DNA of 24,189 bases. Origin: a virus. Shown piece after piece: positions 2,101 through 18,980 of this stretch (the stretch's first letter is position 1; each line of letters starts with the position of its first letter). The notes under the pieces are model-generated. The model had not been told where the DNA came from, did not search any database, and saw nothing but the letters and a program-made list of their open reading frames with translations. Location of the stretch: positions 1 to 24,189 of the IMG/VR virus record IMGVR_UViG_3300031857_001357. One strand, written 5' to 3'. The position numbers and the translations under genes are program-made.

Positions 2101-2357
2101 TGCCTCACGCGCCTCACGCTTGCCTCACGCCTTTTGTGAGGCAAAAATCCCAGTCCAGGACTGGGTTCTGCCCCTCTCCTCACAACCTCACAAAAAAAAG
2201 GATATATAGATAGATGGGAAACCTTATCCCCCTCTATGGGGGTATGGGTCTTTCTATAAGGGGGGATCTCTCGGTAAACCGTGAGGACCGTGAGGACCGT
2301 GAGGATTGAGTGGTGGACTGGGTTCTCAGCCTCACAACTGCCTCACAAGCCTCACAA
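2101..2357. repeat. CCTCAC/GTGAGG repeat cluster, candidate replication origin
   Basis: The noncoding stretch between the primase-helicase stop and the clamp module carries eight CCTCAC hexamers (2103, 2112, 2123, 2178, 2186, 2330, 2341, 2350) and four inverted copies GTGAGG (2136, 2281, 2290, 2299). The last three are an exact 9-base tandem (GTGAGGACC). A 12-base direct repeat GGACTGGGTTCT (2158-2169 and 2315-2326) precedes a CCTCAC group each time. The centre (2191-2216) is A-rich/A+T-rich (A8, then GATATATAGATAGAT). CCCCC/GGGGG (2228-2242) and CCTTAT/ATAAGG (2222-2227/2256-2261) can form nested hairpins. Iteron-like repeats plus an A+T-rich tract beside a primase-helicase are typical of phage or plasmid origins. 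Regulatory operators for the divergent-side RHH protein are an alternative. Confidence 0.6.
2143..2165 (-). terminator. Intrinsic terminator candidate after primase-helicase
   Basis: A perfect 17-base palindrome CCCAGTCC-A-GGACTGGG (2149-2165) is followed, reading on the minus strand, by A then TTTTT (2147-2143). A 6-7 bp usable stem and a U-run make it terminator-like for the leftward primase transcript. It sits within the repeat cluster, so it could instead be a protein-binding palindrome. If it terminates, the clamp gene needs readthrough or its own promoter, which I cannot clearly place. Confidence 0.45.
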
Positions 2358-5040: not shown

Positions 5041-5664
5041 ATGGCAACCGCAACGACTGCAGTGGCGATCACGTCGCCTGACTTCCGGCGCTTGAGCCTG
5101 AACATCCGCGGCACGACGCCGCTGGTGATCAATCGCTTCAGCGCCAAGGCAATGGAGATCATGCGCCAGACGCAGGAGGCTGGCAGCACAGCCAAATCAA
5201 GAAAGACACGCGAGGCAAAGGACTTCGACGCGTTGTACGAAGGCGCAAAGCACGTGGCGGGAGATGGATGGGAGGGCATTCATGCCGCTGCATTTCGGAA
5301 TGCCGCCATCAGCGCCTGCCGCGCATGTGGCTTCAAGATGACGCACGCCAAGTTGGCCTTCATGGTTGAGCATGATGGCTTCGACCGCGTTGACGGCGCG
5401 CCATTGGTCAGGCTGACCAGTGGCGAGGCTGAGCCATGGGTGGCGCCTACGCGCAATGCGACGGGCGTAGTTGACCTGCGCTGCCGGCCGATGTATCGGG
5501 ATTGGGGCGCAACGCTAAGGATCCGGTACGACGCCGGGATGCTTACGGCCGAGGATGTCGTCAATCTGATGGCCCGCGTTGGGCTGCAGGTCGGCATTGG
5601 CGAAGGCCGACCTGATTCCAAGATGAGCGCCGGGCTTGGCTTCGGCCTGTTCGAGATCCTCTAA
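5041..5664 (+). CDS. Conserved phage protein of unknown function
   Basis: A 207-residue soluble protein, first gene of the rightward operon. Features include NIRGTTPLVINRFSAKA near the N terminus, an AGSTAKSRKTREAKDFDALYEGA segment, an internal HAAAFRNAAISACRACGFKMT, and a C-terminal glycine-rich GIGEGRPDSKMSAGLGFGLF. I associate this arrangement with an uncharacterised family seen in phages of several proteobacteria and cyanobacteria; no activity is known to me. ATG at 5041 is chosen because the frame upstream reads through the antisense of the RHH gene and the ACACC repeats. No Shine-Dalgarno is visible. It immediately precedes the pentamer array, and in my recollection the next gene downstream is also a recurrent phage neighbour, but that is memory, not a search. 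Confidence 0.75.
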   Translation: MATATTAVAITSPDFRRLSLNIRGTTPLVINRFSAKAMEIMRQTQEAGSTAKSRKTREAKDFDALYEGAKHVAGDGWEGIHAAAFRNAAISACRACGFKMTHAKLAFMVEHDGFDRVDGAPLVRLTSGEAEPWVAPTRNATGVVDLRCRPMYRDWGATLRIRYDAGMLTAEDVVNLMARVGLQVGIGEGRPDSKMSAGLGFGLFEIL

Positions 5665-5695
5665 GCAATGCACCTCACGGCATCACATCGCATTG

Positions 5696-6028
5696 CGGGC
5701 GAGGCCTGGCTTGGCGGGGCCTGGCGCGGCCGGGCGGGGCATGGCACCGCAGGCCTGGCTAGGCGCGGCTGGGCGCGGCGCGGCTCGGTCAGGCACCGCA
5801 GGCATGGCGTGGCGAGGCTCGGCGAGGCACGGCCGGGCACGGCGCGGCCAGGCACCGCAGGCGTGGCGCGGCAAGGCCTGGCGAGGCCGGGCGTGGCAGG
5901 GCACCGCAGGCAAGGCTCGGCGCGGCGCGGCCTGGCTGGGCTCGGCACCGCAGGCCTGGCCTGGCCCGGCTTGGCACGGCCGGGCACGGCGCGGCCAGGC
6001 ACCGCAGGCGTGCCGTGGCTGGGCTGGC
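5696..6028 (+). repeat. NNGGC pentanucleotide array with six identical 9-base separators
   Basis: About 330 bases built almost wholly of NNGGC pentamers with variable NN. Blocks of 10, 8, 10, 8, 7 and 9 pentamers are each closed by the same separator ACCGCAGGC, at 5746, 5795, 5854, 5903, 5947 and 6001; a degenerate tail of about three units follows. Distances between separators are 49, 59, 49, 44 and 54, all equal to 4 modulo 5, so each separator shifts the pentamer register by one base. One 40-base stretch is exactly duplicated (5826-5865 and 5973-6012). Five of six frames are open only because NNGGC repeats can make just one stop (TAG), so coding is not implied. No gene is called here; a structured or repeat RNA, packaging/replication site or recombination site are possibilities. 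Confidence 0.9.
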
Positions 6029-6046
6029 AGCGCTAGCAACGGTTCG

Positions 6047-6072
6047 GCGTGGTCGGCAACGGCCACGCTTTT
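6047..6072 (+). terminator. Intrinsic terminator or attenuator after the pentamer array
   Basis: GCGTGGTC (6047-6054) can pair with GGCCACGC (6061-6068), an 8-bp stem with one G-U pair and the 6-base loop GGCAAC, followed at once by TTTT (6069-6072). It lies between the end of the array and the ATG at 6092. It could end a transcript covering the array, or attenuate entry into the downstream genes. The U-run is short, so termination may be partial. Confidence 0.5.
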
Positions 6073-6091
6073 ACTCACTCACTTTTTAACC

Positions 6092-6580
6092 ATGGATCAG
6101 TACAAGTTCCGCAATGGCTGGCGTGTTGCTGGCGTTGATGCTCAGACGGTTGGCGATGAATTGCGCCGCATCTATGACGGCAATGGCGAATTGACCGCAC
6201 CATTGGTGGTTGATGAGGCCAGGCCTGATGATGCTCCATTGCATCCGGCCTTTGAATGGAATGATGAGATCGCGGCCGAATTGCACCGCGAACATCAGGC
6301 GCGAACGATGATCCGTTCGGTTGAGATCATCCGCAATGATGAAACGCATCCGAGCTTCGTGCATGTCAGCAGCGTTGGGAGTTACATCCCAGGTGAGATA
6401 ATCGCCCAGGATGTTGATCTGTATGAAACTGCATGGCGTGATGCCGCTGATCGACTTGGACAGGCTCATCACGCCTTGTTGAAATTGCAGCAGCTGGCAG
6501 CCACTAGAAAGCCAGCCGCATCGACCAAGATCAAGCGCGCATTGTCTCACGTGCAGAAAGCCAAAGAGGCCGTGGCATGA
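6092..6580 (+). CDS. Conserved phage protein of unknown function
   Basis: A 162-residue protein starting MDQYKFRNGWRVAGVDAQTV. It has an acidic middle (VVDEARPDDAPLHPAFEWND) and a coiled-coil-like C terminus (DAADRLGQAHHALLKLQQLA ... HVQKAKEAVA). I recall similar phage proteins with a DESRPEDAPLHPVFEW-like core, none with a known function. The frame is open upstream through the whole pentamer array to 5636. I choose ATG 6092 because the sequence before it is repeat-derived Ala/Arg/Gly text and because the terminator-like hairpin lies just upstream. The leader TTTTACTCACTCACTTTTTAACC has no Shine-Dalgarno. The stop overlaps the next ATG (ATGA). Confidence 0.78.
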   Translation: MDQYKFRNGWRVAGVDAQTVGDELRRIYDGNGELTAPLVVDEARPDDAPLHPAFEWNDEIAAELHREHQARTMIRSVEIIRNDETHPSFVHVSSVGSYIPGEIIAQDVDLYETAWRDAADRLGQAHHALLKLQQLAATRKPAASTKIKRALSHVQKAKEAVA

Positions 6581-6840
6581 GCGATTACCAGGCATTTCTA
6601 GGTTCCAAATCCACCGCCTGCCCGCTATCCGGTTTTGACCCGCAGCATGCCATGTCACTTCAATTACCTCACCGCATTTACAAAATCACGTACCAACGCC
6701 CGTGGGGCGTTTGCACAATCAACACCGCACAGTTTAAAACAGAAGACGAATTGCGCGTTGGCTTCGCAAAATCGTATCCGGGCTGTGAGCTTTTATCTGT
6801 TGAAGATGTAACTACTTATTTCTTCCCGGCCAACAAATGA
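6577..6840 (+). CDS. Hypothetical protein, first gene of the IbrA/IbrB cassette
   Basis: An 87-residue protein that I do not recognise. It has an N-terminal SDYQAFLGSKSTACPLSGFD, a central ITYQRPWGVCTINTAQFKTE and a C-terminal YPGCELLSVEDVTTYFFPANK, suggesting a small alpha/beta domain with three cysteines. There is no signal peptide or membrane segment. Both ends overlap neighbours by ATGA, so it is coupled to the IbrA-like gene. From here through the IbrA-like gene the DNA is visibly richer in A and T (more TTT, ATT, AAA codons) than the flanking operon, which suggests a shared foreign origin. Confidence 0.65.
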   Translation: MSDYQAFLGSKSTACPLSGFDPQHAMSLQLPHRIYKITYQRPWGVCTINTAQFKTEDELRVGFAKSYPGCELLSVEDVTTYFFPANK

Positions 6841-8153
6841 GAACCTATTTAGACACCAGCGTCTATGATGCCTCCATTGAACGTCTGGACTTTATCTTTG
6901 CCAACTTTGAGCGTATTTACGTTTCTTTTTCAGGCGGCAAAGACTCAGGTGTTCTTTTGAATCTTGTTATCGACTATGTTCGCGCCCGTGGTATTGAGCG
7001 CAAAATTGGCGTTCAAATCATGGATAACGAAGCGAACTACACGCATAGCGAGGAGTTCATGCACCGCATTCTTCAAGCCAATCGGGACATTCTTGAAATC
7101 TACTGGTGCTGCCTGCCCATCACTCTTCCTTGTACCGTATCTTCTTACGAAATTGATTGGCAGTGCTGGGGCGAACAGGATCAACATCGTTGGATTCGCC
7201 CTATGCCAAAGGATGATTACATTGTTAACTTTCGGAATCATCCATTCGGTGACTTGTTCATTGAAAACATGGACTACGCCACCTTTTGGGACATGTTCGC
7301 CGAGTGGTACAGCCAAGGCCAGTCATGCGCCAACCTAATCGGAATCCGCACCGTTGAATCGCTTAATCGTTTTCGCGCCATTCTGAATCAAGACAAAGAG
7401 ACAATGCTTGGTCGAATGTGGACCAAGAAAAACACGGCGCACACCTACAACTGCTATCCGATCTACGATTGGCGCACCGAGGATATTTGGACCGCAAACG
7501 CCAAATTTGGCTGGGATTACAACAATCTCTACGACGTGTTCTACATGGCTGGCATTCCCATTAAAAAGATGCGAGTTGCCTCGCCATTTATGTCAGAGTC
7601 AAAGTCAAGCCTAGCAATGTACCGAGTAATTGACCCTCAGGTATGGGCCCGGCTTTGCGCGCGCGTTGGCGGAGCTAACTTCATGGCCACCTATGGCAAA
7701 CAGCTTGATTACAAATCCTTCAAGCTGCCAGCCGGTCACACTTGGAAATCCTTTGTGAAATTTCTGTTGGCCACTTTGCCTGATCAGTCCAGTGCAAATT
7801 TTAAGCAGCGCTTCATTCAGTCAATCCGTTACTGGGGGCGAGTGGGGCGCGGCCTGCCTGATTACATCATTGATGCCCTGCAACATATCGGCACTCGCTT
7901 TTATATCAACGGCACAACGCGCCACGGTGGCAATAACCTACGACGCGTTGTGATCAAAGTGCCACCTGATCATCTTGATGATCTGCCATGCCATAACAGC
8001 ATGGTCACGTCGTGGAAGCGCTTTGCTATTACCGTTCTTAAAAACGACCACACCTGCAAATACCTTGGCCTGGCCCCAACGCAAGAACAACAACGTCGGC
8101 AAAGGTCAATTCAGCGCAAGTACAGCCAAGTCCTTAACCGTTCTGTCAAATGA
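6837..8153 (+). CDS. IbrA-like PP-loop (PAPS reductase-family, DUF3440) protein
   Basis: A 438-residue N-type ATP-pyrophosphatase relative. The PP-loop is FSGGKDSGVLLNL (31-43), preceded by the strand RIYVS. TYNCYPIYDWRTEDIW is the typical downstream motif of the phosphoadenosine-phosphosulphate reductase/IbrA group, and GIRTVESLNRF is another family signature. The C terminus (SWKRFAITVLKNDHTCKYLG) resembles that of DUF3440 proteins. IbrA and IbrB are paired genes first described in E. coli as regulators of immunoglobulin-binding protein expression; the chemistry is unsettled. Here the partner follows with ATGA overlap. The family would adenylate a substrate using ATP; whether that is sulphur transfer or nucleic-acid modification is not shown by the sequence. 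Confidence 0.85.
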   Translation: MRTYLDTSVYDASIERLDFIFANFERIYVSFSGGKDSGVLLNLVIDYVRARGIERKIGVQIMDNEANYTHSEEFMHRILQANRDILEIYWCCLPITLPCTVSSYEIDWQCWGEQDQHRWIRPMPKDDYIVNFRNHPFGDLFIENMDYATFWDMFAEWYSQGQSCANLIGIRTVESLNRFRAILNQDKETMLGRMWTKKNTAHTYNCYPIYDWRTEDIWTANAKFGWDYNNLYDVFYMAGIPIKKMRVASPFMSESKSSLAMYRVIDPQVWARLCARVGGANFMATYGKQLDYKSFKLPAGHTWKSFVKFLLATLPDQSSANFKQRFIQSIRYWGRVGRGLPDYIIDALQHIGTRFYINGTTRHGGNNLRRVVIKVPPDHLDDLPCHNSMVTSWKRFAITVLKNDHTCKYLGLAPTQEQQRRQRSIQRKYSQVLNRSVK

Positions 8154-9091
8154 AAATCCTTAACGCCGCTCAGCTGCCTGCCGACCGCGTTGTGCAATGC
8201 CCTCGCGGCGGATTCACTAGCCATCGCCTTGTTGTTGAAACGGATGGCATGGGATACAGCATGACCAAGACAATCGTGCATCCAGGCAAGCCGCACCGTT
8301 GGCACTATCAGCACCACCTTGAAACCTGCTATTGCGTCAGCGGCAAAGGTCTGTTAATCAATGAAGCCACGAAAGAGTATTACGCTGTTGCATCCGATGT
8401 GACCTACGTGCTCGACAAGCATGATGCTCACACTTTTGAAGCACTTGAGCCCACCGTCTTGATTTGCGTTTTCAATCCGCCCCTTAAAGGAAACGAACTT
8501 CACGATGAGAACGATTCATACCCTTGGCGATCCCCGGTTTACTCCGTACGCAGTATTCCTATTGAAAAAGTTACCGCCAACGATTACAACCCGAACTCTG
8601 TGGCGCCGCCTGAAATGGCGCTACTGGAAACGTCAATCTGGGAAGACGGTTACACGCAGCCTGTCGTTGTCGTGCATGATGCCGAGCGTGACTTATATGT
8701 GGTCGTTGACGGTTTTCACCGTTATCTCACGCTGAAGAACAGTCAGCGCATCCGTGAACGCGAAGGCGGCCGCTTGCCAGTGGTAGTGCTGCGCAAAGAG
8801 CTGCACGACCGCATGGCTTCAACGATCCGCCACAACCGAGCCCGTGGCTCGCACAATATTGAGCTGATGAGCGTGATCGTTGCCGAGCTAATTGAGATGG
8901 GCAAGGGCGATGCATGGATCTGTAAGCACATTGGCATGAGCCCAGATGAACTGCTGCGCCTTAAGCAAGTGACAGGGTTGGCGTCCTTGTTCCTGGGCAA
9001 AGACTTCAGCAAGGCGTGGGATGTTGAACAGATTGACAACGTGACGGAGGATCTTGAGCGTGAAGCTGAAGAGGATTTGGCTGCCGATTGA
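8150..9091 (+). CDS. Ectoine-synthase-like cupin fused to IbrB/ParB-like domain
   Basis: A 313-residue two-domain protein. Residues 1-122 match ectoine synthase (EctC): DGMGYSMTKT (32-41), HHLETCYCVSGKG (55-67), YVLDKHDAH (86-94) and VFNPPLKGNELHDE (107-120). The three iron ligands known from Paenibacillus lautus EctC (Glu57, Tyr85, His93, from memory) map to Glu58, Tyr86 and His94. Residues 133-290 are IbrB/ParB-like: IPIEKVTANDYNPN (136-149), LETSIWEDGYTQP (159-171), VVDGFHRY (185-192), RMASTIRHNRARGSHNIELM (221-240), ending FSKAW. The C terminus is acidic. ParB-fold domains bind or cut DNA and some use CTP. No ectA or ectB is present, so ectoine synthesis is unlikely; the cupin may sense or modify a small ligand. 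It is one uninterrupted frame, coupled to the IbrA-like gene. Confidence 0.85.
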   Translation: MKILNAAQLPADRVVQCPRGGFTSHRLVVETDGMGYSMTKTIVHPGKPHRWHYQHHLETCYCVSGKGLLINEATKEYYAVASDVTYVLDKHDAHTFEALEPTVLICVFNPPLKGNELHDENDSYPWRSPVYSVRSIPIEKVTANDYNPNSVAPPEMALLETSIWEDGYTQPVVVVHDAERDLYVVVDGFHRYLTLKNSQRIREREGGRLPVVVLRKELHDRMASTIRHNRARGSHNIELMSVIVAELIEMGKGDAWICKHIGMSPDELLRLKQVTGLASLFLGKDFSKAWDVEQIDNVTEDLEREAEEDLAAD

Positions 9092-9687: not shown

Positions 9688-11027
9688 CCCTCCGCCCCTA
9701 CCAGCAGCAGCTGGTGACTGACATCCGGTTGCAGTACCAGCTGGGCAAGCGCAGCGTGCTGGCAGTGCTGCCTACCGGCGGTGGCAAGACCGTCTGCTTT
9801 GCCTACATCGCTGATGCCGCCAGCCGCAAAGGCAACCGCGTGCTGATCTTGGTGCATCGCGCGGAGCTGCTGGATCAGGCCAGCCGCAGCCTGCCGATGC
9901 ACCATGGCATCATCGCCGCCAATCGCGCCATGGACCTGAGCCATGCGGTGCAGGTGGCCAGCGTGCAAACCGTGGCGCGGCGGCTGCACCGGCTGCCGCG
10001 GGACATGTTTCAGCTGATCGTGGTGGACGAGGCCCACCACACCACAGCTGGCACATGGGCGGCAGTGGTGGAGCACTTCAACACCGCCAAGCTGCTAGGG
10101 GTGACAGCAACGCCGATCCGCGGTGATGGCCGCGGCCTTGGCGAGCATTACCAGGCCATGGTCGAAGGCCCGAGCGCGCAGTGGCTGACCGACAACGGCT
10201 ACCTGGCGGCTGCCCGGGTGCTGGCACCGCCAGGGTTCAGCGCTGCCGGGATGCGCAAGCGGATGGGTGACTTCGATCAACGCGATGCGGAGCAGCAGGT
10301 GCGGGCGATCCATGGCGACTGCGTTAGCCACTACCGGCAGCACCTGGCAGGCCAGACCGCCATCGCGTTCTGCTGCAGCGTTGCTCATGCTGAGGCAGTG
10401 GCGGCATTGTTCCTGCAGGCTGGAATCCCAGCCGCCAGCATCGACGGCAGCATGGATGCCACCACGCGCCGCCAACTGCTGAGTGACCTCGGCACTGGAC
10501 GGATCAAGGTGCTGACCAGCTGCGCGCTGATTGGTGAGGGCGTGGACGTGCCTAGCGTCGGCGGCTGCATCCTGCTGCGCCCCACGGCCAGTGTGGCGCT
10601 CCACCTGCAGATGATCGGCCGATGCCTGCGGCCATCCGGCAGCAAGGTGGCTGTAGTGCTCGACCATGTAGGCAATTGCCTGCGGCTGGGTCACCACCTC
10701 GAGCCGCGCGAGTGGACGCTAGAGGGGCTCAAGAAGCAAGACCGCGAGAAGGCGCCATCGGTGAAGGTCTGCCCCAAGTGCTACGCCGCAATGGCTAGCC
10801 AGGCGCGGGTCTGCGGCGAGTGCGGCCATACATTCGCCGCTGAGGTGCGCGAGCTGGAGCAGGTGGATGGTGAGCTGGTGGAGATGGCGGCCCGCCAACG
10901 CAAACGCCAACAAGGCACCGCGCAGTCCCTCGACGACCTGCGCCAGCTAGCGCAGCAACGCGGCTACCGTCGCGGCTGGGCTGAGAGGGTGTACCAGGCT
11001 AGGTTGCTTAAAAGGCATGGCGGATGA
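9684..11027 (+). CDS. DEAD/DEAH-box SF2 DNA helicase with zinc ribbon
   Basis: A 447-residue superfamily 2 helicase of the SSL2/UvrB-like group common in phages. Motif I PTGGGKT (30-36), motif Ia region LILVHRAELLDQA, motif II DEAHH (115-119), motif III TATP (141-144), a second RecA domain with IDGSMDATTRRQLL (253-266), GEGVDVP (284-290), and motif VI QMIGRCLRP (309-317). A C-terminal zinc ribbon has Cys363, Cys366, Cys377 and Cys380. It would remodel DNA using ATP, probably in recombination or replication restart beside the exonuclease-Bet-SSB genes. ATG 9684 is chosen because it overlaps the previous stop by ATGA and starts right at MTLRPYQQQ, the family's usual N terminus; a longer in-frame extension to 9525 is only the overlap region. 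Confidence 0.9.
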   Translation: MTLRPYQQQLVTDIRLQYQLGKRSVLAVLPTGGGKTVCFAYIADAASRKGNRVLILVHRAELLDQASRSLPMHHGIIAANRAMDLSHAVQVASVQTVARRLHRLPRDMFQLIVVDEAHHTTAGTWAAVVEHFNTAKLLGVTATPIRGDGRGLGEHYQAMVEGPSAQWLTDNGYLAAARVLAPPGFSAAGMRKRMGDFDQRDAEQQVRAIHGDCVSHYRQHLAGQTAIAFCCSVAHAEAVAALFLQAGIPAASIDGSMDATTRRQLLSDLGTGRIKVLTSCALIGEGVDVPSVGGCILLRPTASVALHLQMIGRCLRPSGSKVAVVLDHVGNCLRLGHHLEPREWTLEGLKKQDREKAPSVKVCPKCYAAMASQARVCGECGHTFAAEVRELEQVDGELVEMAARQRKRQQGTAQSLDDLRQLAQQRGYRRGWAERVYQARLLKRHGG

Positions 11028-11815
11028 CGGCACACATCTTCTCCTGCGGTGGCGGCGTTCAGTCCACGGCCTGCCTGGTGCTCGCCGCTCAAGGCGCCAT
11101 CCCCTACCGCACCTTCGTGTTCGCCAATGTTGGCGACCAGTCCGAAGACCCCCGCACCATCCGCTACATCGCCGAGGTGCTGAAGCCTTATGCCGCAGAG
11201 CACGGCATCGCGTGGGTTGATCTGCAGCGTCAGCGCCGCGATGGCACGCCGGTAGATCTCTACGAGGAGCTGCTGCGCCCCATCCGCTCCATCGACATCC
11301 CCGTGCGCATGTCCAACGGTGCCCCCGGCAATCGGAACTGCACCGTTCACTTCAAGATCAAGCCGATCGCCAAGTGGATCCGCAAGCACGCGCCTGGCGG
11401 CACCCTTGGCAAAGGCATCAGCACCGATGAGCCGCACCGGGCCACGCCATCGCGCGAAGACGACGGCTACGCCTCCGCCTATCCCCTCATCGAGCTCGGT
11501 CTCAGCCGCAGCGATTGCCTGCGCGTGGTGCGCGAAGCCGGCCTGCCGCAGCCGCCGAAGTCGTCGTGCTGGTTTTGCCCATACAAGACCACCGACCAAT
11601 GGATCACGATGAGGCAAGAACGGCCGGATCTATTTGAGCGTGTGATTCGGCTTGAAGAAATGCTGAACGCCAAGCGCGCAACCATTGGCAAGGATCACGT
11701 TTTCATAAGCGGGCGATGCAAGCCACTGTCTGTTGCTATTCCAGATCAACTTGGATTGTTCTCCGAATGGATTGACGAGCAGGATGGATGCGAGTCTGGC
11801 TATTGCATGACGTGA
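11024..11815 (+). CDS. Second PP-loop PAPS reductase-like phage protein
   Basis: A 263-residue protein with N-terminal PP-loop-like SCGGGVQSTACLVL (7-20). The loop has Gly-Gly-Gly-Val-Gln-Ser where SGGKDS stands in the IbrA-like protein, a variant I associate with phage adenosine phosphosulphate reductase-like proteins. Other family marks are NVGDQSEDPRT (35-44), NGAPGNRNCTVHFKIKPI (98-115), and SSCWFCPYK (180-188). Cysteines 106, 182, 185, 256 and 261 could bind a metal or Fe-S cluster. It is coupled to the helicase (ATGA) and to the nuclease gene (GTGA). Substrate is unknown. The last 70 or so codons look less G+C-rich than the rest. Confidence 0.8.
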   Translation: MTAHIFSCGGGVQSTACLVLAAQGAIPYRTFVFANVGDQSEDPRTIRYIAEVLKPYAAEHGIAWVDLQRQRRDGTPVDLYEELLRPIRSIDIPVRMSNGAPGNRNCTVHFKIKPIAKWIRKHAPGGTLGKGISTDEPHRATPSREDDGYASAYPLIELGLSRSDCLRVVREAGLPQPPKSSCWFCPYKTTDQWITMRQERPDLFERVIRLEEMLNAKRATIGKDHVFISGRCKPLSVAIPDQLGLFSEWIDEQDGCESGYCMT

Positions 11816-15747: not shown

Positions 15748-15885
15748 CTGACTTTCGTGCGCTGTGCCAAGAGCTGATGGATGAAGCGATCTATCTGGGA
15801 TCGCTTCCCTATGAGCAAGATCCAGATTCCGATCTGATTGCCCGCGCCAGCACCGCCCTAGCCCAGCCCGAGCCGCAGGGGCCGA
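15442..15885 (+). repeat. Three copies of a 25-base PEPQGP-coding direct repeat
   Basis: Near-identical 25-base units beginning GCCCAGCCCGAGCCGCAGGG lie at 15442-15466, 15595-15619 (two changes) and 15861-15885. All encode A(Q/R)PEPQGP in frame within the two MTDFRALC paralogues. A 15-base tandem (15886-15900, 15901-15915) follows the third and encodes TDEEP twice. Such units are natural sites for unequal recombination by the neighbouring Bet system. Confidence 0.8.
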
Positions 15886-16085
15886 CGGATGAGGAGCCAA
15901 CGGATGAGGAGCCAACGGATCAAGAGATAGAAGAATGGGCAGACGCTGCTGCGGAAGTCCCCTTAGAGGAAATGGACCCAGAAGTGCATGGGTGGCGACG
16001 TTGTTTCAAGTCAGACGAATTCAGCGAAACGATCCGCGCCGCCTTAGCCCGCTGGGGCCGCCCCGCCATCGAGCCGGTGCCTTGA
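15744..16085 (+). CDS. MTDFRALC-family protein, copy 2
   Basis: A 113-residue paralogue of the gene before it: MTDFRALCQELMDEAIYLGS, then ARASTALAQPEPQGPTDEEP with a TDEEPTDEEPTDQE tandem, and the tail TIRAALARWGRPAIEPVP. It is very acidic. It has one PEPQGP module where copy 1 has two. Start ATG overlaps copy 1's stop; the stop overlaps the TTG of the next gene. Function unknown. Confidence 0.72.
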   Translation: MTDFRALCQELMDEAIYLGSLPYEQDPDSDLIARASTALAQPEPQGPTDEEPTDEEPTDQEIEEWADAAAEVPLEEMDPEVHGWRRCFKSDEFSETIRAALARWGRPAIEPVP

Positions 16086-16261
16086 AGCCGCTCCAGCTGT
16101 ACCGCGTGGCATTCGGCCACGCCACACCGCTCCACCTAATGGCCCGTGACCTTGCACACGCCATCACCAGCGCCAAGGAACTGTGCCCCGATACCCAGTT
16201 CCTGAGCGCCACGCTGGTGCCTGAATGGGACAACATTGATGACCTGAACCATGAGCGCTGA
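16082..16261 (+). CDS. Small hypothetical protein before sigma factor
   Basis: A 59-residue protein starting TTG: KPLQLYRVAFGHATPLHLMA, RDLAHAITSAKELCPDTQFL, ATLVPEWDNIDDLNHER. The alternating strand-helix-strand looks like a compact domain. It is coupled to the MTDFRALC gene (TTGA) and overlaps the sigma gene by 11 bases. No family is recognised; a role near sigma cannot be read from the sequence. Confidence 0.6.
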   Translation: MKPLQLYRVAFGHATPLHLMARDLAHAITSAKELCPDTQFLSATLVPEWDNIDDLNHER

Positions 16262-17117
16262 TTCAATGAAGGATTACCTAGCCGAGATCGGCAGGTTCCC
16301 GCTATTGACTGGTGAGCAGGAGATCCAGTTATCCCGCCAGGTGCGGCGGATGATTGAACTGCAAGCCATGGAAGGCGAGCGCACGAAAGCTGAACTGCGC
16401 GAGATCAAGCGCGGACAGCGCGCACGCGACACGATCATGAATTGCAACCTACGGCTAGTTGTTCACATTGCCAAGCGGTACGCAACTCGGCTCAAGTGCA
16501 ATGGCCTTGAGATGATGGACATCATCCAAGAAGGCGCCATCGGGCTGCATCGTGCAGCCGAGCTATTTGATGGCAGCAAAGGCTACAAGTTCAGCACCTA
16601 TGCCTACTGGTGGATTCGTCAGTCAATTACTCGCGCGATTGATACCAAGGAACGAATCATTCGAGTGCCTCAGCACCTGCTGGATAAGATCTACCGCGCA
16701 ACCAAGCTGCAGCGCGAATACCTCCAAGAGCATGGCCGACCGATTTCAATGGTGGCGCTGGCAGAAGAGATGGAAATGACTGTAGATGAACTGCAGATGA
16801 TCCTGCAGCGCAATACGCCGCATAGCAGCCTTGATCAAATGGTCGGTGATAATGGTTCGCCGTTGATTGATTTGATCGCATCAGAAGATCCCGAAATTGG
16901 CGATGAACTATCGCCAATGTATGCGGAGCAGCTGAAGCTAGCTTTTTTTCGTCTAGGAGAACGGGATAGGTATGTTGTATCTGCCTACCATGGATTGAAC
17001 GGCCCGCAGCAATCGCAGCGGGAGATTGGCGAGACGCTTGGCATTTCGCGCAGTGCCGTTGGCCAGCGCCGAGAAAATGCCGTGCGCCGCTTGCGGCTGA
17101 TGATGCGAGCCAGTTAG
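16251..17117 (+). CDS. Sigma-70 family RNA polymerase sigma factor
   Basis: A 288-residue sigma factor with regions 1.2 to 4. Region 1.2: DYLAEIGRFPLLTGEQEIQL (8-27). Region 2: NLRLVVHIAKRYATR, GLEMMDIIQEGAIGLHRAAE (85-104), GYKFSTYAYWWIRQSITRAI (111-130), the -10-binding helix. Region 3: RVPQHLLDKIYRATKL (138-153). Region 4: GISRSAVGQRRENAVRRLRL (264-283) recognises -35 elements. This resembles cyanobacterial group-2 RpoD-like sigmas, lacking the long region 1.1, and would direct host polymerase to phage promoters, plausibly the late genes transcribed on the minus strand. As last gene of the plus operon it could act as the early-to-late switch. It could also be a host gene picked up by the phage. 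Confidence 0.9.
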   Translation: MSADSMKDYLAEIGRFPLLTGEQEIQLSRQVRRMIELQAMEGERTKAELREIKRGQRARDTIMNCNLRLVVHIAKRYATRLKCNGLEMMDIIQEGAIGLHRAAELFDGSKGYKFSTYAYWWIRQSITRAIDTKERIIRVPQHLLDKIYRATKLQREYLQEHGRPISMVALAEEMEMTVDELQMILQRNTPHSSLDQMVGDNGSPLIDLIASEDPEIGDELSPMYAEQLKLAFFRLGERDRYVVSAYHGLNGPQQSQREIGETLGISRSAVGQRRENAVRRLRLMMRAS

Positions 17118-17645: not shown

Positions 17646-17811
17646 GCAACTCCGGGATGGGTAGAACGTTGACCGAAAGGCCAAGGATGTGATCGTTGGA
17701 TGGCGCCAACTCAGTGAGCCGCGCCACGAAGTTGTCGCTCACGTTTTCGGGATCGTCGTCTTCGCTTTCAACGACGATCGTGTACTCAACCTCTAGGACG
17801 TACTGTCTCAC
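17629..17811 (-). CDS. Small hypothetical protein between endolysin and HNH
   Basis: A 60-residue acidic protein starting GTG: RQYVLEVEYTIVVESEDDDP, NVSDNFVARLTELAPSNDHI, LSVNVLPIPELRGSSD. A beta strand, acidic loop, helix and strand layout is visible; no family recognised. GTGA overlap with the endolysin stop indicates coupling. Confidence 0.6.
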   Translation of the reverse strand: MRQYVLEVEYTIVVESEDDDPENVSDNFVARLTELAPSNDHILGLSVNVLPIPELRGSSD

Positions 17812-18980
17812 GCCGCGTGACTTACCAGCATCGCCCAGCCGGTGCCGGGGCCATCAACCTCCCAGCGGCGCAGCCAGTTCTTGCGGCTGTAGGCGATTCC
17901 AGCGCCTTTGGTGTGGTTGACGTAGCCGCCGTTCACCATGTCCGCCTCGCCGTTGGGGTCGTTGTGGACGTAGGCGCCGCTGGTTGCCCCGATGATCACG
18001 CTCCAGTGGCCGCCTCCGGTTGGTGCGCCGACAGGCCCCTTATGCAGCCAGCCGACCATCACGGGGCGCCCTGCCTCTAATTCGGTGTCAATTACGGCGG
18101 GATTGCAGTTAGTGCGAAGCCGTGCTGTTAGCGCCAAGGATTGCAGCGCCTTGATCTGCGCTTGCGCGTCGGTGGTGTCGCCATACTTGGCGCGGATCTT
18201 GTTGTAGGCATCGTCGCTGGTGATCTTGCCGTAGAAGCGGGCCACCATGGCAGCGCTACTGCTGAAACATTCGCGGTAGCCGGTGCCGCTGGCATTATCG
18301 TTCTGCGCCTCATACGGCACACGCAGCAGGATGCCCTGCTGTTGCAGTTGCGGTGCGCCCTTCTGCCACAGTGCGCCTTCGGCCTTCCGCCGCCGCAGTA
18401 GGCCAGCTTCGACGTTTGTGCCAGGGTTGCAGTAGAGCAGCAACGCAGCTGGCACCGATGGCCAGTCCTTGTCACGCAGCGCTGCGCTGATGGTGTCAAA
18501 CCCAGCGCTGCCGTAGAACCCAGTGCCGAGGTTGTAGGCGAAACTTACAAGTGCGCAGCGCTGCGGATCGCCCATGCTTGCCCAGTGCGGGGTTGTGCGC
18601 AGTCGGTCTGCGATGCGGTCCACCTCTAATCGGAGCAGCATGTCGGCTTCGATGACGTTAATCTTGTCGCCGCGCTGTACGGAGCTGCCATCCGGGAATC
18701 GCGTGGTGCCATAACCAATCGTCCACGGATCGCCGCCGCTCAGCGGATCAGGGTAGGCGCTGAGGTGGCAGCCCTCAAACTCCTTGATGATCTGGATCGC
18801 ATCAGCCAGGTCGGTTTGCTTGCCGGGGACGCTCCAGGTCTTGAACCATGGCTGGTCGCGGTTCAGCAGTTGCGGGGCGCGCTTGTTGATGGCGGACTCG
18901 AGCTCGCTGATCGAAGCCAGCTGATGCGGCAGGCCCTTGAAGTACCGAAACAGGTCAATCAGCCGCAGTGGTTGCGTCAT
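17808..18980 (-). CDS. Two-domain endolysin: GH24 lysozyme plus C39-like peptidase
   Basis: A 390-residue lysis enzyme. Residues 60-205 are a phage T4/P22-type lysozyme (GH24): IIKEFEGCHLSAYPDP (64-79) with catalytic Glu69 and Asp78, WTIGYGTT (86-93), and FAYNLGTGFYGSAGF (147-161). Residues 215-388 resemble C39-like cysteine peptidases: ILLRVPYEAQNDNASGTGYR, ECFSSSAAMVARFYG with Cys238, GGGHWSVIIGA with His325, and YVHNDPNGE with Asn340/Asp341. The enzyme would cut glycan strands and possibly peptide stems of host peptidoglycan. The N-terminal 60 residues are unassigned; no signal peptide is evident, so release needs a holin. It follows two small membrane-type genes, as expected for a lysis cassette. 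Confidence 0.88.
   Translation of the reverse strand: MTQPLRLIDLFRYFKGLPHQLASISELESAINKRAPQLLNRDQPWFKTWSVPGKQTDLADAIQIIKEFEGCHLSAYPDPLSGGDPWTIGYGTTRFPDGSSVQRGDKINVIEADMLLRLEVDRIADRLRTTPHWASMGDPQRCALVSFAYNLGTGFYGSAGFDTISAALRDKDWPSVPAALLLYCNPGTNVEAGLLRRRKAEGALWQKGAPQLQQQGILLRVPYEAQNDNASGTGYRECFSSSAAMVARFYGKITSDDAYNKIRAKYGDTTDAQAQIKALQSLALTARLRTNCNPAVIDTELEAGRPVMVGWLHKGPVGAPTGGGHWSVIIGATSGAYVHNDPNGEADMVNGGYVNHTKGAGIAYSRKNWLRRWEVDGPGTGWAMLVSHAA

What the first reader, a model, noticed from the sequence alone, without database searches (positions are those of the whole stretch)
5696..6028. Pentamer array with six identical separators that each shift the register
The sequence shows about 60 NNGGC units in blocks of 10, 8, 10, 8, 7 and 9, each ended by an identical ACCGCAGGC. 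All separator distances equal 4 modulo 5. Conservation of the separator and of GGC while NN drifts implies selection on structure, protein recognition or a templated expansion, not on protein coding, since frames remain open trivially. A 40-base exact duplication (5826-5865, 5973-6012) shows that it grows by segment copying. It lies between two conserved phage genes of unknown function and ends at a terminator-like hairpin, so it may be an RNA.
Basis: partly seen in the sequence, partly recalled or inferred. Interest (0 to 1): 0.78.

Follow-up and report, generated by a model that had tools for sequence, protein, structure and literature searches.

The report
Phage guide-RNA array with RAMP protein
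The odd pentamer array is almost certainly a set of six back-to-back guide RNAs of a VIPR system, a CRISPR-like, phage-carried DNA-recognition system first described in a 2026 preprint, with the gene just upstream encoding its RNA-binding Vipr protein.

Summary
The array belongs to a VIPR locus (Viral Interference Programmable Repeat; PMC13142463, 2026). The gene before it (5041-5664) is a Vipr RAMP protein: its family profile matches the solved SUSP1 Vipr chain (PDB 36pp) at E=1e-41 and its predicted fold matches Csm3/Cas7 subunits. Of 119 viral loci chosen by array pattern alone, 84 carry this gene (median gap 20 bp, 82 of 84 same strand).

GGY bases are scaffold, NN pairs are guide letters, separators punctuate the guides. 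Two independent tests support the published 1-nt-skip code. A guide of mycobacteriophages Florinda and Quico matches 18/18 letters in the tape-measure gene of four phages (0 of 1200 shuffles reach 17). NN pairs of 399 guides behave like codon positions read coherently per guide (z=5.4).

No target is proven for the window's own guides; guide 3 has one weak candidate, a phage DnaC-like gene. Phages whose Vipr is 100% identical carry almost wholly different guides. New member of a very recently described kind.

The parts
5041..5664 (+). vipr gene (gene A, phrog_4652): RAMP protein, 207 aa
   Evidence: profile hit to PDB 36pp_D SUSP1 Vipr E=1.1e-41, Csm3/Cas7 fold
5692..5700 (+). leading separator, mutated (ATTGCGGGC)
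   Evidence: ATTGCAGGC at the same place in L007 and L008
5701..5745 (+). guide 1, 9 units: GA CT TT GG CT GC CG GG AT
5746..5754 (+). separator ACCGCAGGC
5755..5794 (+). guide 2, 8 units: CT TA GC TG GC GC TC CA
5795..5803 (+). separator ACCGCAGGC
5804..5853 (+). guide 3, 10 units: AT GT GA TC GA AC CG AC GC CA
5854..5862 (+). separator ACCGCAGGC
5863..5902 (+). guide 4, 8 units: GT GC AA CT GA CG GT AG (recurs in L007 with one more unit in front)
5903..5911 (+). separator ACCGCAGGC
5912..5946 (+). guide 5, 7 units: AA TC GC GC CT TG TC
5947..5955 (+). separator ACCGCAGGC
5956..6000 (+). guide 6, 9 units: CT CT CC TT AC CG AC GC CA (3' half shared with guide 3)
6001..6009 (+). separator ACCGCAGGC
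6010..6076 (+). conserved trailer of the array with a 9-bp hairpin at 6047-6068 followed by TTTT (terminator-like)
   Evidence: fold; same trailer in L007 and L008; the strict terminator scan did not list it because its T run is short
6092..6580 (+). gene B (phrog_15946): conserved neighbour, candidate accessory (vap) gene
   Evidence: homologue in 57 loci; predicted fold without a PDB match

Best explanation
This is a VIPR locus. The gene at 5041-5664 makes Vipr, a small RAMP protein. The array at 5692-6009 is transcribed on the same strand and ends at the hairpin at 6047-6068. It carries six tandem guides (vrRNAs) of 7-10 NNGGY units. Each Vipr subunit covers one 5-nt unit; GGY is the protein-held scaffold and the two N letters face the target. 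Consecutive NN pairs specify target DNA with one unread base between them (NNxNNxNN), so a 9-unit guide reads 18 letters across 26 bp, usually with the unread base at codon wobble positions. The ACCGCAGGC separator contains a 4-nt unit (AGGC) that breaks the 5-nt register; I propose it ends one guide, starts the next, and stops a Vipr filament from running across two guides. By analogy with the published system the likely effect is repression of genes of competing phages. Shown here: the protein's homology and fold, the array-gene linkage, the guide/separator anatomy, and support for the 1-nt-skip code in relatives. Inferred: transcription, processing, the role of the separator, gene B as the accessory (vap) gene, and the window's own targets.
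For: Protein: E=1.1e-41 to the SUSP1 Vipr chain, PDB 36pp (window protein alone E=0.003); Csm3/Cas7 fold matches, probability about 1, TM 0.4-0.5; invariant W155, R190, G202 and near-invariant G185, G187. Linkage: 84 of 119 loci found only by eight GGC pentamers carry the gene, median gap 20 bp, 82/84 same strand. Arrays with varied NN abound in viral contigs, while hits in cellular genomes are mostly simple repeats. RNA: GGY constant and NN variable as in vrRNAs (PMC13142463). Code: the Florinda/Quico guide matches 18/18 by the 1-nt skip in Che8, Squirty, Wachhund and Minnie tape-measure genes; the four targets differ within the site only at skipped bases; skips 0/2/3 reach 13/17/14; 1200 shuffles reach at most 16. 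The match covers exactly the 9 units between separators and fails in the constant units on both sides. Guides are coherent as coding or template strand in codon phase, z=5.4, 0 of 300 random relabellings as high, while generic composition contrasts are not inflated.
Against: No proven target for the window's own six guides: five guides were scanned in viral contigs, in full or in part, and hits were at about chance level. Only one of 27 guides from cultured relatives found a target. The broad test of 505 guides on 5.7 million letters (both strands) showed only a small skip-1 surplus, part of it from loci fetched by those very patterns. Blocks hold 7-10 units against 9-16 in the published vrRNAs, and no structured tail follows each block. 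There are no expression data. The supplement with staggered arrays (fig. S18) could not be read.
Confidence: 0.92

Rival explanations
1. It is a VIPR guide array, but the guides of this phage control genes of the host or of the phage itself rather than competing phages.
For: No competitor target was proven for the window's guides; the host is unknown, so host targets could not be searched.
Against: The one clear target in relatives is a structural gene of rival phages of the same host; the preprint finds mostly phage, satellite and prophage targets; the fast turnover of guides fits changing enemies better than fixed own or host genes.
Confidence: 0.15
2. A DNA site: repeated binding sites for a replication, partition or packaging protein (iteron- or centromere-like). 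The phage has a ParB-like gene at 8150-9091.
For: Tandem short units in an intergenic region; ParB-like gene nearby.
Against: Linked to a Vipr RAMP gene, not to ParB, in unrelated phages; the GGY strand is nearly always the vipr strand; NN are coherent in codon phase and one guide has an 18/18 skip-coded target, which a binding site would not need.
Confidence: 0.03
3. A CRISPR array with 9-nt repeats and a Cas7-like protein.
For: Predicted RAMP fold matches Csm3/Cas7.
Against: No cas gene among the scanned window genes; the variable parts are GGY pentamers, not free spacers; sequence homology goes to Vipr.
Confidence: 0.01
4. A neutral minisatellite or a coding repeat.
For: 40-bp duplication; open frames cross the array on both strands.
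Against: GGY and separator kept while NN vary across many phages; register breaks and frames that do not agree between relatives.
Confidence: 0.01

Closest known systems
VIPR systems (Viral Interference Programmable Repeat), type II example Escherichia phage SUSP1; PMC13142463
   Same: Vipr RAMP protein, GGY/NN pentamer RNA beside the gene, phage-borne, conserved neighbour gene, 1-nt-skip reading supported in relatives
   Different: Blocks of 7-10 units joined head to tail by a 9-nt register-shifting separator, with one trailer and terminator-like hairpin at the end of the array, instead of ~100-nt RNAs each with its own structured tail; gene B has no recognised relative of known function
[quoted passage not shown] S18 of the same preprint, seen only as a mention in the text)
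   Same: Probably this very architecture: neighbouring guides would share the separator
Class 1 CRISPR-Cas effectors (Csm3/Cas7 backbones)
   Same: RAMP fold; guide RNA held in fixed-length steps (established knowledge of Class 1 effectors)
   Different: No cas genes found here, no CRISPR-type repeats, noncontiguous guide code with 5-nt instead of 6-nt steps

Membership tests
VIPR system | Vipr protein: RAMP homologous to SUSP1 Vipr | tested here: met
VIPR system | Noncoding array of alternating GGY / NN next to vipr | tested here: met
VIPR system | 9-16 YNNGG units per vrRNA | tested here: inconclusive
   7-10 units per block in the window; how the published count maps onto staggered arrays is unknown
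VIPR system | Conserved structured 3' tail on each vrRNA (type II) | tested here: not met
   Blocks are joined by ACCGCAGGC only; one trailer and hairpin end the whole array. This argues against type II, not against VIPR, since the preprint describes other array architectures
VIPR system | Adjacent vap accessory gene | tested here: inconclusive
   Gene B is a conserved neighbour but could not be assigned to vap1-6
VIPR system | 1-nt-skip DNA recognition code, in relatives of this family | tested here: met
   18/18 natural target; codon-phase coherence of 399 guides
VIPR system | 1-nt-skip targets of the window's own guides | tested here: inconclusive
   Hits at about chance level; one candidate, L444
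VIPR system | vrRNA expressed and bound to Vipr | not testable with these tools
   needs RNA sequencing and pull-down
VIPR system | Mostly carried by phages | tested here: met
   Window is an IMG/VR virus record; arrays common in viral contigs, diverse ones rare in cellular genomes
CRISPR-Cas | cas genes and direct-repeat/unique-spacer array | tested here: not met
   No Cas protein among the scanned window genes; no Rfam match; variable blocks are GGY pentamers
Protein-coding repeat | One conserved reading frame through the repeat | tested here: not met
   ORFs crossing the array lie in several frames and on both strands; register breaks and block lengths not multiples of 3

The most novel reading that the evidence does not exclude
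The 9-nt separator is a punctuation mark: by inserting one 4-nt unit it breaks the 5-nt filament register, so one transcript carries many guides without a tail for each. Because all blocks share the GGY scaffold and separator, recombination inside the array swaps half-guides and whole guides (block 6 looks like a chimera of another 5' part and the 3' half of block 3). Such phages would rewrite their guide sets rapidly without any dedicated spacer-acquisition machinery.
Probability: 0.5. Interest if true: 0.75.

Novelty: new member of a known kind. Interest (0 to 1): 0.6.

Why it matters
VIPR is known from one 2026 preprint. This locus and its relatives give an independent check, made without the preprint's guides, that the pentamer letters are guide information read with a 1-nt skip. 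They also give a natural guide-target pair in easily grown Mycobacterium smegmatis phages (Florinda/Quico against Che8/Squirty/Wachhund/Minnie) on which the system could be tested, and they show how fast guide sets turn over between phages with identical Vipr proteins. They assign a likely function to PHROG 4652 and to 'hypothetical' genes of many sequenced actinobacteriophages.

Tried and rejected
Rfam: no family matches in the window, three relatives or eight other array loci. Pfam: no domain in gene A or B. Skip-rule test on 1.4 Mb of array loci: no signal, target set too small and unrelated. Broader test on 505 guides: only a small surplus for skip 1, some of it circular because loci fetched by pattern were included, and one shuffled guide and one skip-0 guide also reached a run of 9; not used as evidence. 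Scans of window guides in viral contigs: guide 4 (8 units) 5 hits in 3 independent loci; guide 1 (9 units) 1 hit, L347, not in wobble phase of a believable gene; guide 2 (8 units) 1 hit; guide 6 (9 units) none; guide 3 without its first unit, none; guide 3 first 8 units, 7 hits, one of which (L444, DnaC-like helicase loader, phrog_50) extends to 9 units = 18/18 on the coding strand in wobble phase. From the 16-nt hit rates I estimate 0.2-0.6 such 18-nt hits by chance, so it is only a candidate. A promoter scan found nothing. Several mycobacteriophage accessions from memory were not in the collection.

Full report
Observation. The array is as described. Between the stop of the gene at 5041-5664 and the start of the gene at 6092 lie 52 NNGG(C/T) pentamers in blocks of 10, 8, 10, 8, 7 and 9, each closed by ACCGCAGGC; separator spacings are 49, 59, 49, 44 and 54 nt, all 4 mod 5. 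The motif GGCACCGCAGGC is found 6 times against 0.02 expected. The 40-bp repeat 5826/5973 is exact. Compared with relatives, the leading CGGGC is the tail of a mutated separator, so the guide parts have 9, 8, 10, 8, 7 and 9 units.

Relatives at the same locus. Gene A found 40 related loci in viral contigs. Almost all whose contig continues have a pentamer array directly after gene A, and most then have gene B. Of 160 short spacings between GCAGGY motifs in 26 loci (window included), 140 are 4 mod 5, most often 44 or 49 nt. The window's gene A differs from those of L007 and L008 by 11 and 10 of 624 bases with no amino-acid change, yet no block is identical; only the 8 units of block 4 recur in L007, with one more unit in front. 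Array content therefore turns over much faster than its neighbours.

Arrays outside this locus. In viral contigs nearly all matches have varied NN; in cellular genomes most are simple repeats of one or two units. Of the 119 viral loci, 84 hold a gene A homologue, median gap 20 bp, 82 of 84 on the same strand; among the cellular loci only L191 and L203, both with varied NN in metagenome bins, do. The array pattern alone thus finds the gene.

What gene A is. Its homologues belong to PHROG 4652, function unknown. A profile of 79 homologues hits PDB chain 36pp_D, deposited as 'SUSP1 Vipr protein', with E=1.1e-41 along nearly its whole length; the window protein alone hits it with E=0.003. AlphaFold2 gives mean pLDDT 91.6, and Foldseek's best PDB matches are Csm3/Cas7-type backbone subunits of type III and type VII CRISPR complexes, probability about 1, TM-score 0.4-0.5. 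The invariant residues W155, R190 and G202 and the near-invariant G181, G185 and G187 lie in the C-terminal part, the last ones in a glycine-rich stretch as expected of a RAMP glycine loop (inference).

The known system. PMC13142463 describes VIPR: a phage-carried RAMP, Vipr, with RNAs of YNNGG repeats whose NN letters recognise double-stranded DNA with one skipped base between pairs, used to repress competing mobile elements. [quoted passage not shown] S18). The supplement could not be read here, so whether the window's architecture is exactly that form is likely but unproven.

Testing the code in this family. Cultured relatives of genes A and B exist: Cyanophage Cy-LDV1, Cheoctovirus phages of Mycobacterium smegmatis, and Gordonia phages; those checked carry pentamer arrays with GGCAGGC separators. 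Twenty-seven guides from these phages were compared with 1.5 Mb of their genomes and those of other M. smegmatis phages under skips of 0-3. One guide, shared by Florinda and Quico (AA TT AT TT TT AT GC CC TC), matches 18 of 18 letters with skip 1 and at most 13, 17 and 14 with skips 0, 2 and 3. The site lies in the tape-measure gene of Che8, Squirty, Wachhund and Minnie, on the strand opposite to coding, with the skipped base at the wobble position; the four sites differ from each other only at skipped bases. None of 600 unit shuffles or 600 letter shuffles exceeds 16. The match covers exactly the units between the constant CA and AT units of the separators, which do not match the site.

A test that needs no target. 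If guides copy coding DNA with a step of three, the NN pairs of one guide should look like codon positions 1-2 throughout, or like their reverse complements throughout. In 399 guides that share no run of four units, the between-guide variance of the coding/template contrast exceeds that of units permuted among guides of the same locus (z=5.4); 300 random relabellings of the contrast reach at most 3.3, and contrasts of G+C, purine or keto content are not inflated. A mixture fit gives all weight to codon positions 1-2, about 63% coding and 37% template; the permuted data choose the same phase because the pooled letters do, so the coherence lies in the likelihood, not in the weights. The positions 2-3 contrast is about equally coherent (z=4.7 against 4.9). 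The test shows a step that keeps codon phase; it does not alone prove a skip of exactly one.

Targets of the window's guides. Not proven. Guide 3 without its terminal CA (which also closes blocks 2 and 6) matches 18/18, coding strand and wobble phase, a DnaC-like helicase loader in L444; I estimate 0.2-0.6 such hits by chance, so it is a candidate only. Guide 1 has one 18/18 hit in L347 without sensible phase.

Separator. ACCGCAGGC reads as a unit with a broken GG (ACCGC) plus a 4-nt unit (AGGC). In relatives the first part varies (ATGGC, ACGGC, GCGGC and others) and the GCAGGC core is constant (the core was the search motif), so the register break itself looks like the conserved feature. A RAMP filament with a 5-nt footprint could not pass it in register; I infer that it delimits the guides, and the Florinda match agrees.

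Gene B. It is a neighbour of Vipr in many phages (57 loci), helical with a small sheet, pLDDT 93.9, with no match in PDB folds and only uncharacterised viral matches. It is the natural candidate for an accessory (vap) gene.

Verdict. A VIPR locus with a tandem, separator-punctuated guide array: a new member of a very recently described kind. The most open part is the separator mechanism and the rapid rewriting of guides by recombination.

Noticed in passing
window 8150-9091: Gene with an N-terminal ectoine-synthase-like cupin domain (PF06339, E=1e-36) followed by a ParB-like domain; an unusual fusion for a phage.
   Followed up: no
window 6837-8153 and 11024-11815: Two PAPS-reductase-like genes (one with DUF3440) around the ParB-like gene and a helicase; could be a DNA-modification or sulfur-transfer cassette.
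   Followed up: no
window 2278-2305 and 15877-15920: Two short tandem repeats, ACCGTGAGG x3.1 and AGGAGCCAACGGATG x2.9.
   Followed up: no
window 16251-17117: Phage-encoded sigma-70 factor with regions 1.2 to 4.
   Followed up: no
window 17808-18980: Endolysin that joins a phage lysozyme domain to a C39-like cysteine peptidase domain.
   Followed up: no
L292 2501-2887 (Mycobacterium phage Donkeykong gene 48): An annotated 'hypothetical protein' gene lies over the guide array and is probably not a gene; Zizzle 53, LastJedi 43 and BobaPhett 51 look alike by position.
   Followed up: partly
L108, L134, L160, L053, L117: Other array architectures: L108 (158-kb phage) has a recurring GGGAGCAGCAGCATCCGGCG(C/T)AAAGGGATGGAC between sub-arrays; L134 has separators with TACCTCA (shift 1); L160 has AAGGAACG separators (shift 2); L053 and L117 have long unbroken pentamer runs. 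No Rfam match.
   Followed up: partly
35 of the 119 loci L047-L165: Loci found by the array pattern without a recognised Vipr homologue; several have clear arrays (e.g. L068, L112, L137), so the gene may lie outside the stretch, be more diverged, or be absent.
   Followed up: no
L191 and L203: Varied pentamer arrays with Vipr homologues in contigs of metagenome bins named Fibrobacteres and Patescibacteria; may be prophages or phage contigs.
   Followed up: no
L029, L030, L035, L036: Stretches after gene A in which GGC has decayed to GG with freer neighbours although the Vipr gene is kept; either decayed guides or a different scaffold motif.
   Followed up: no
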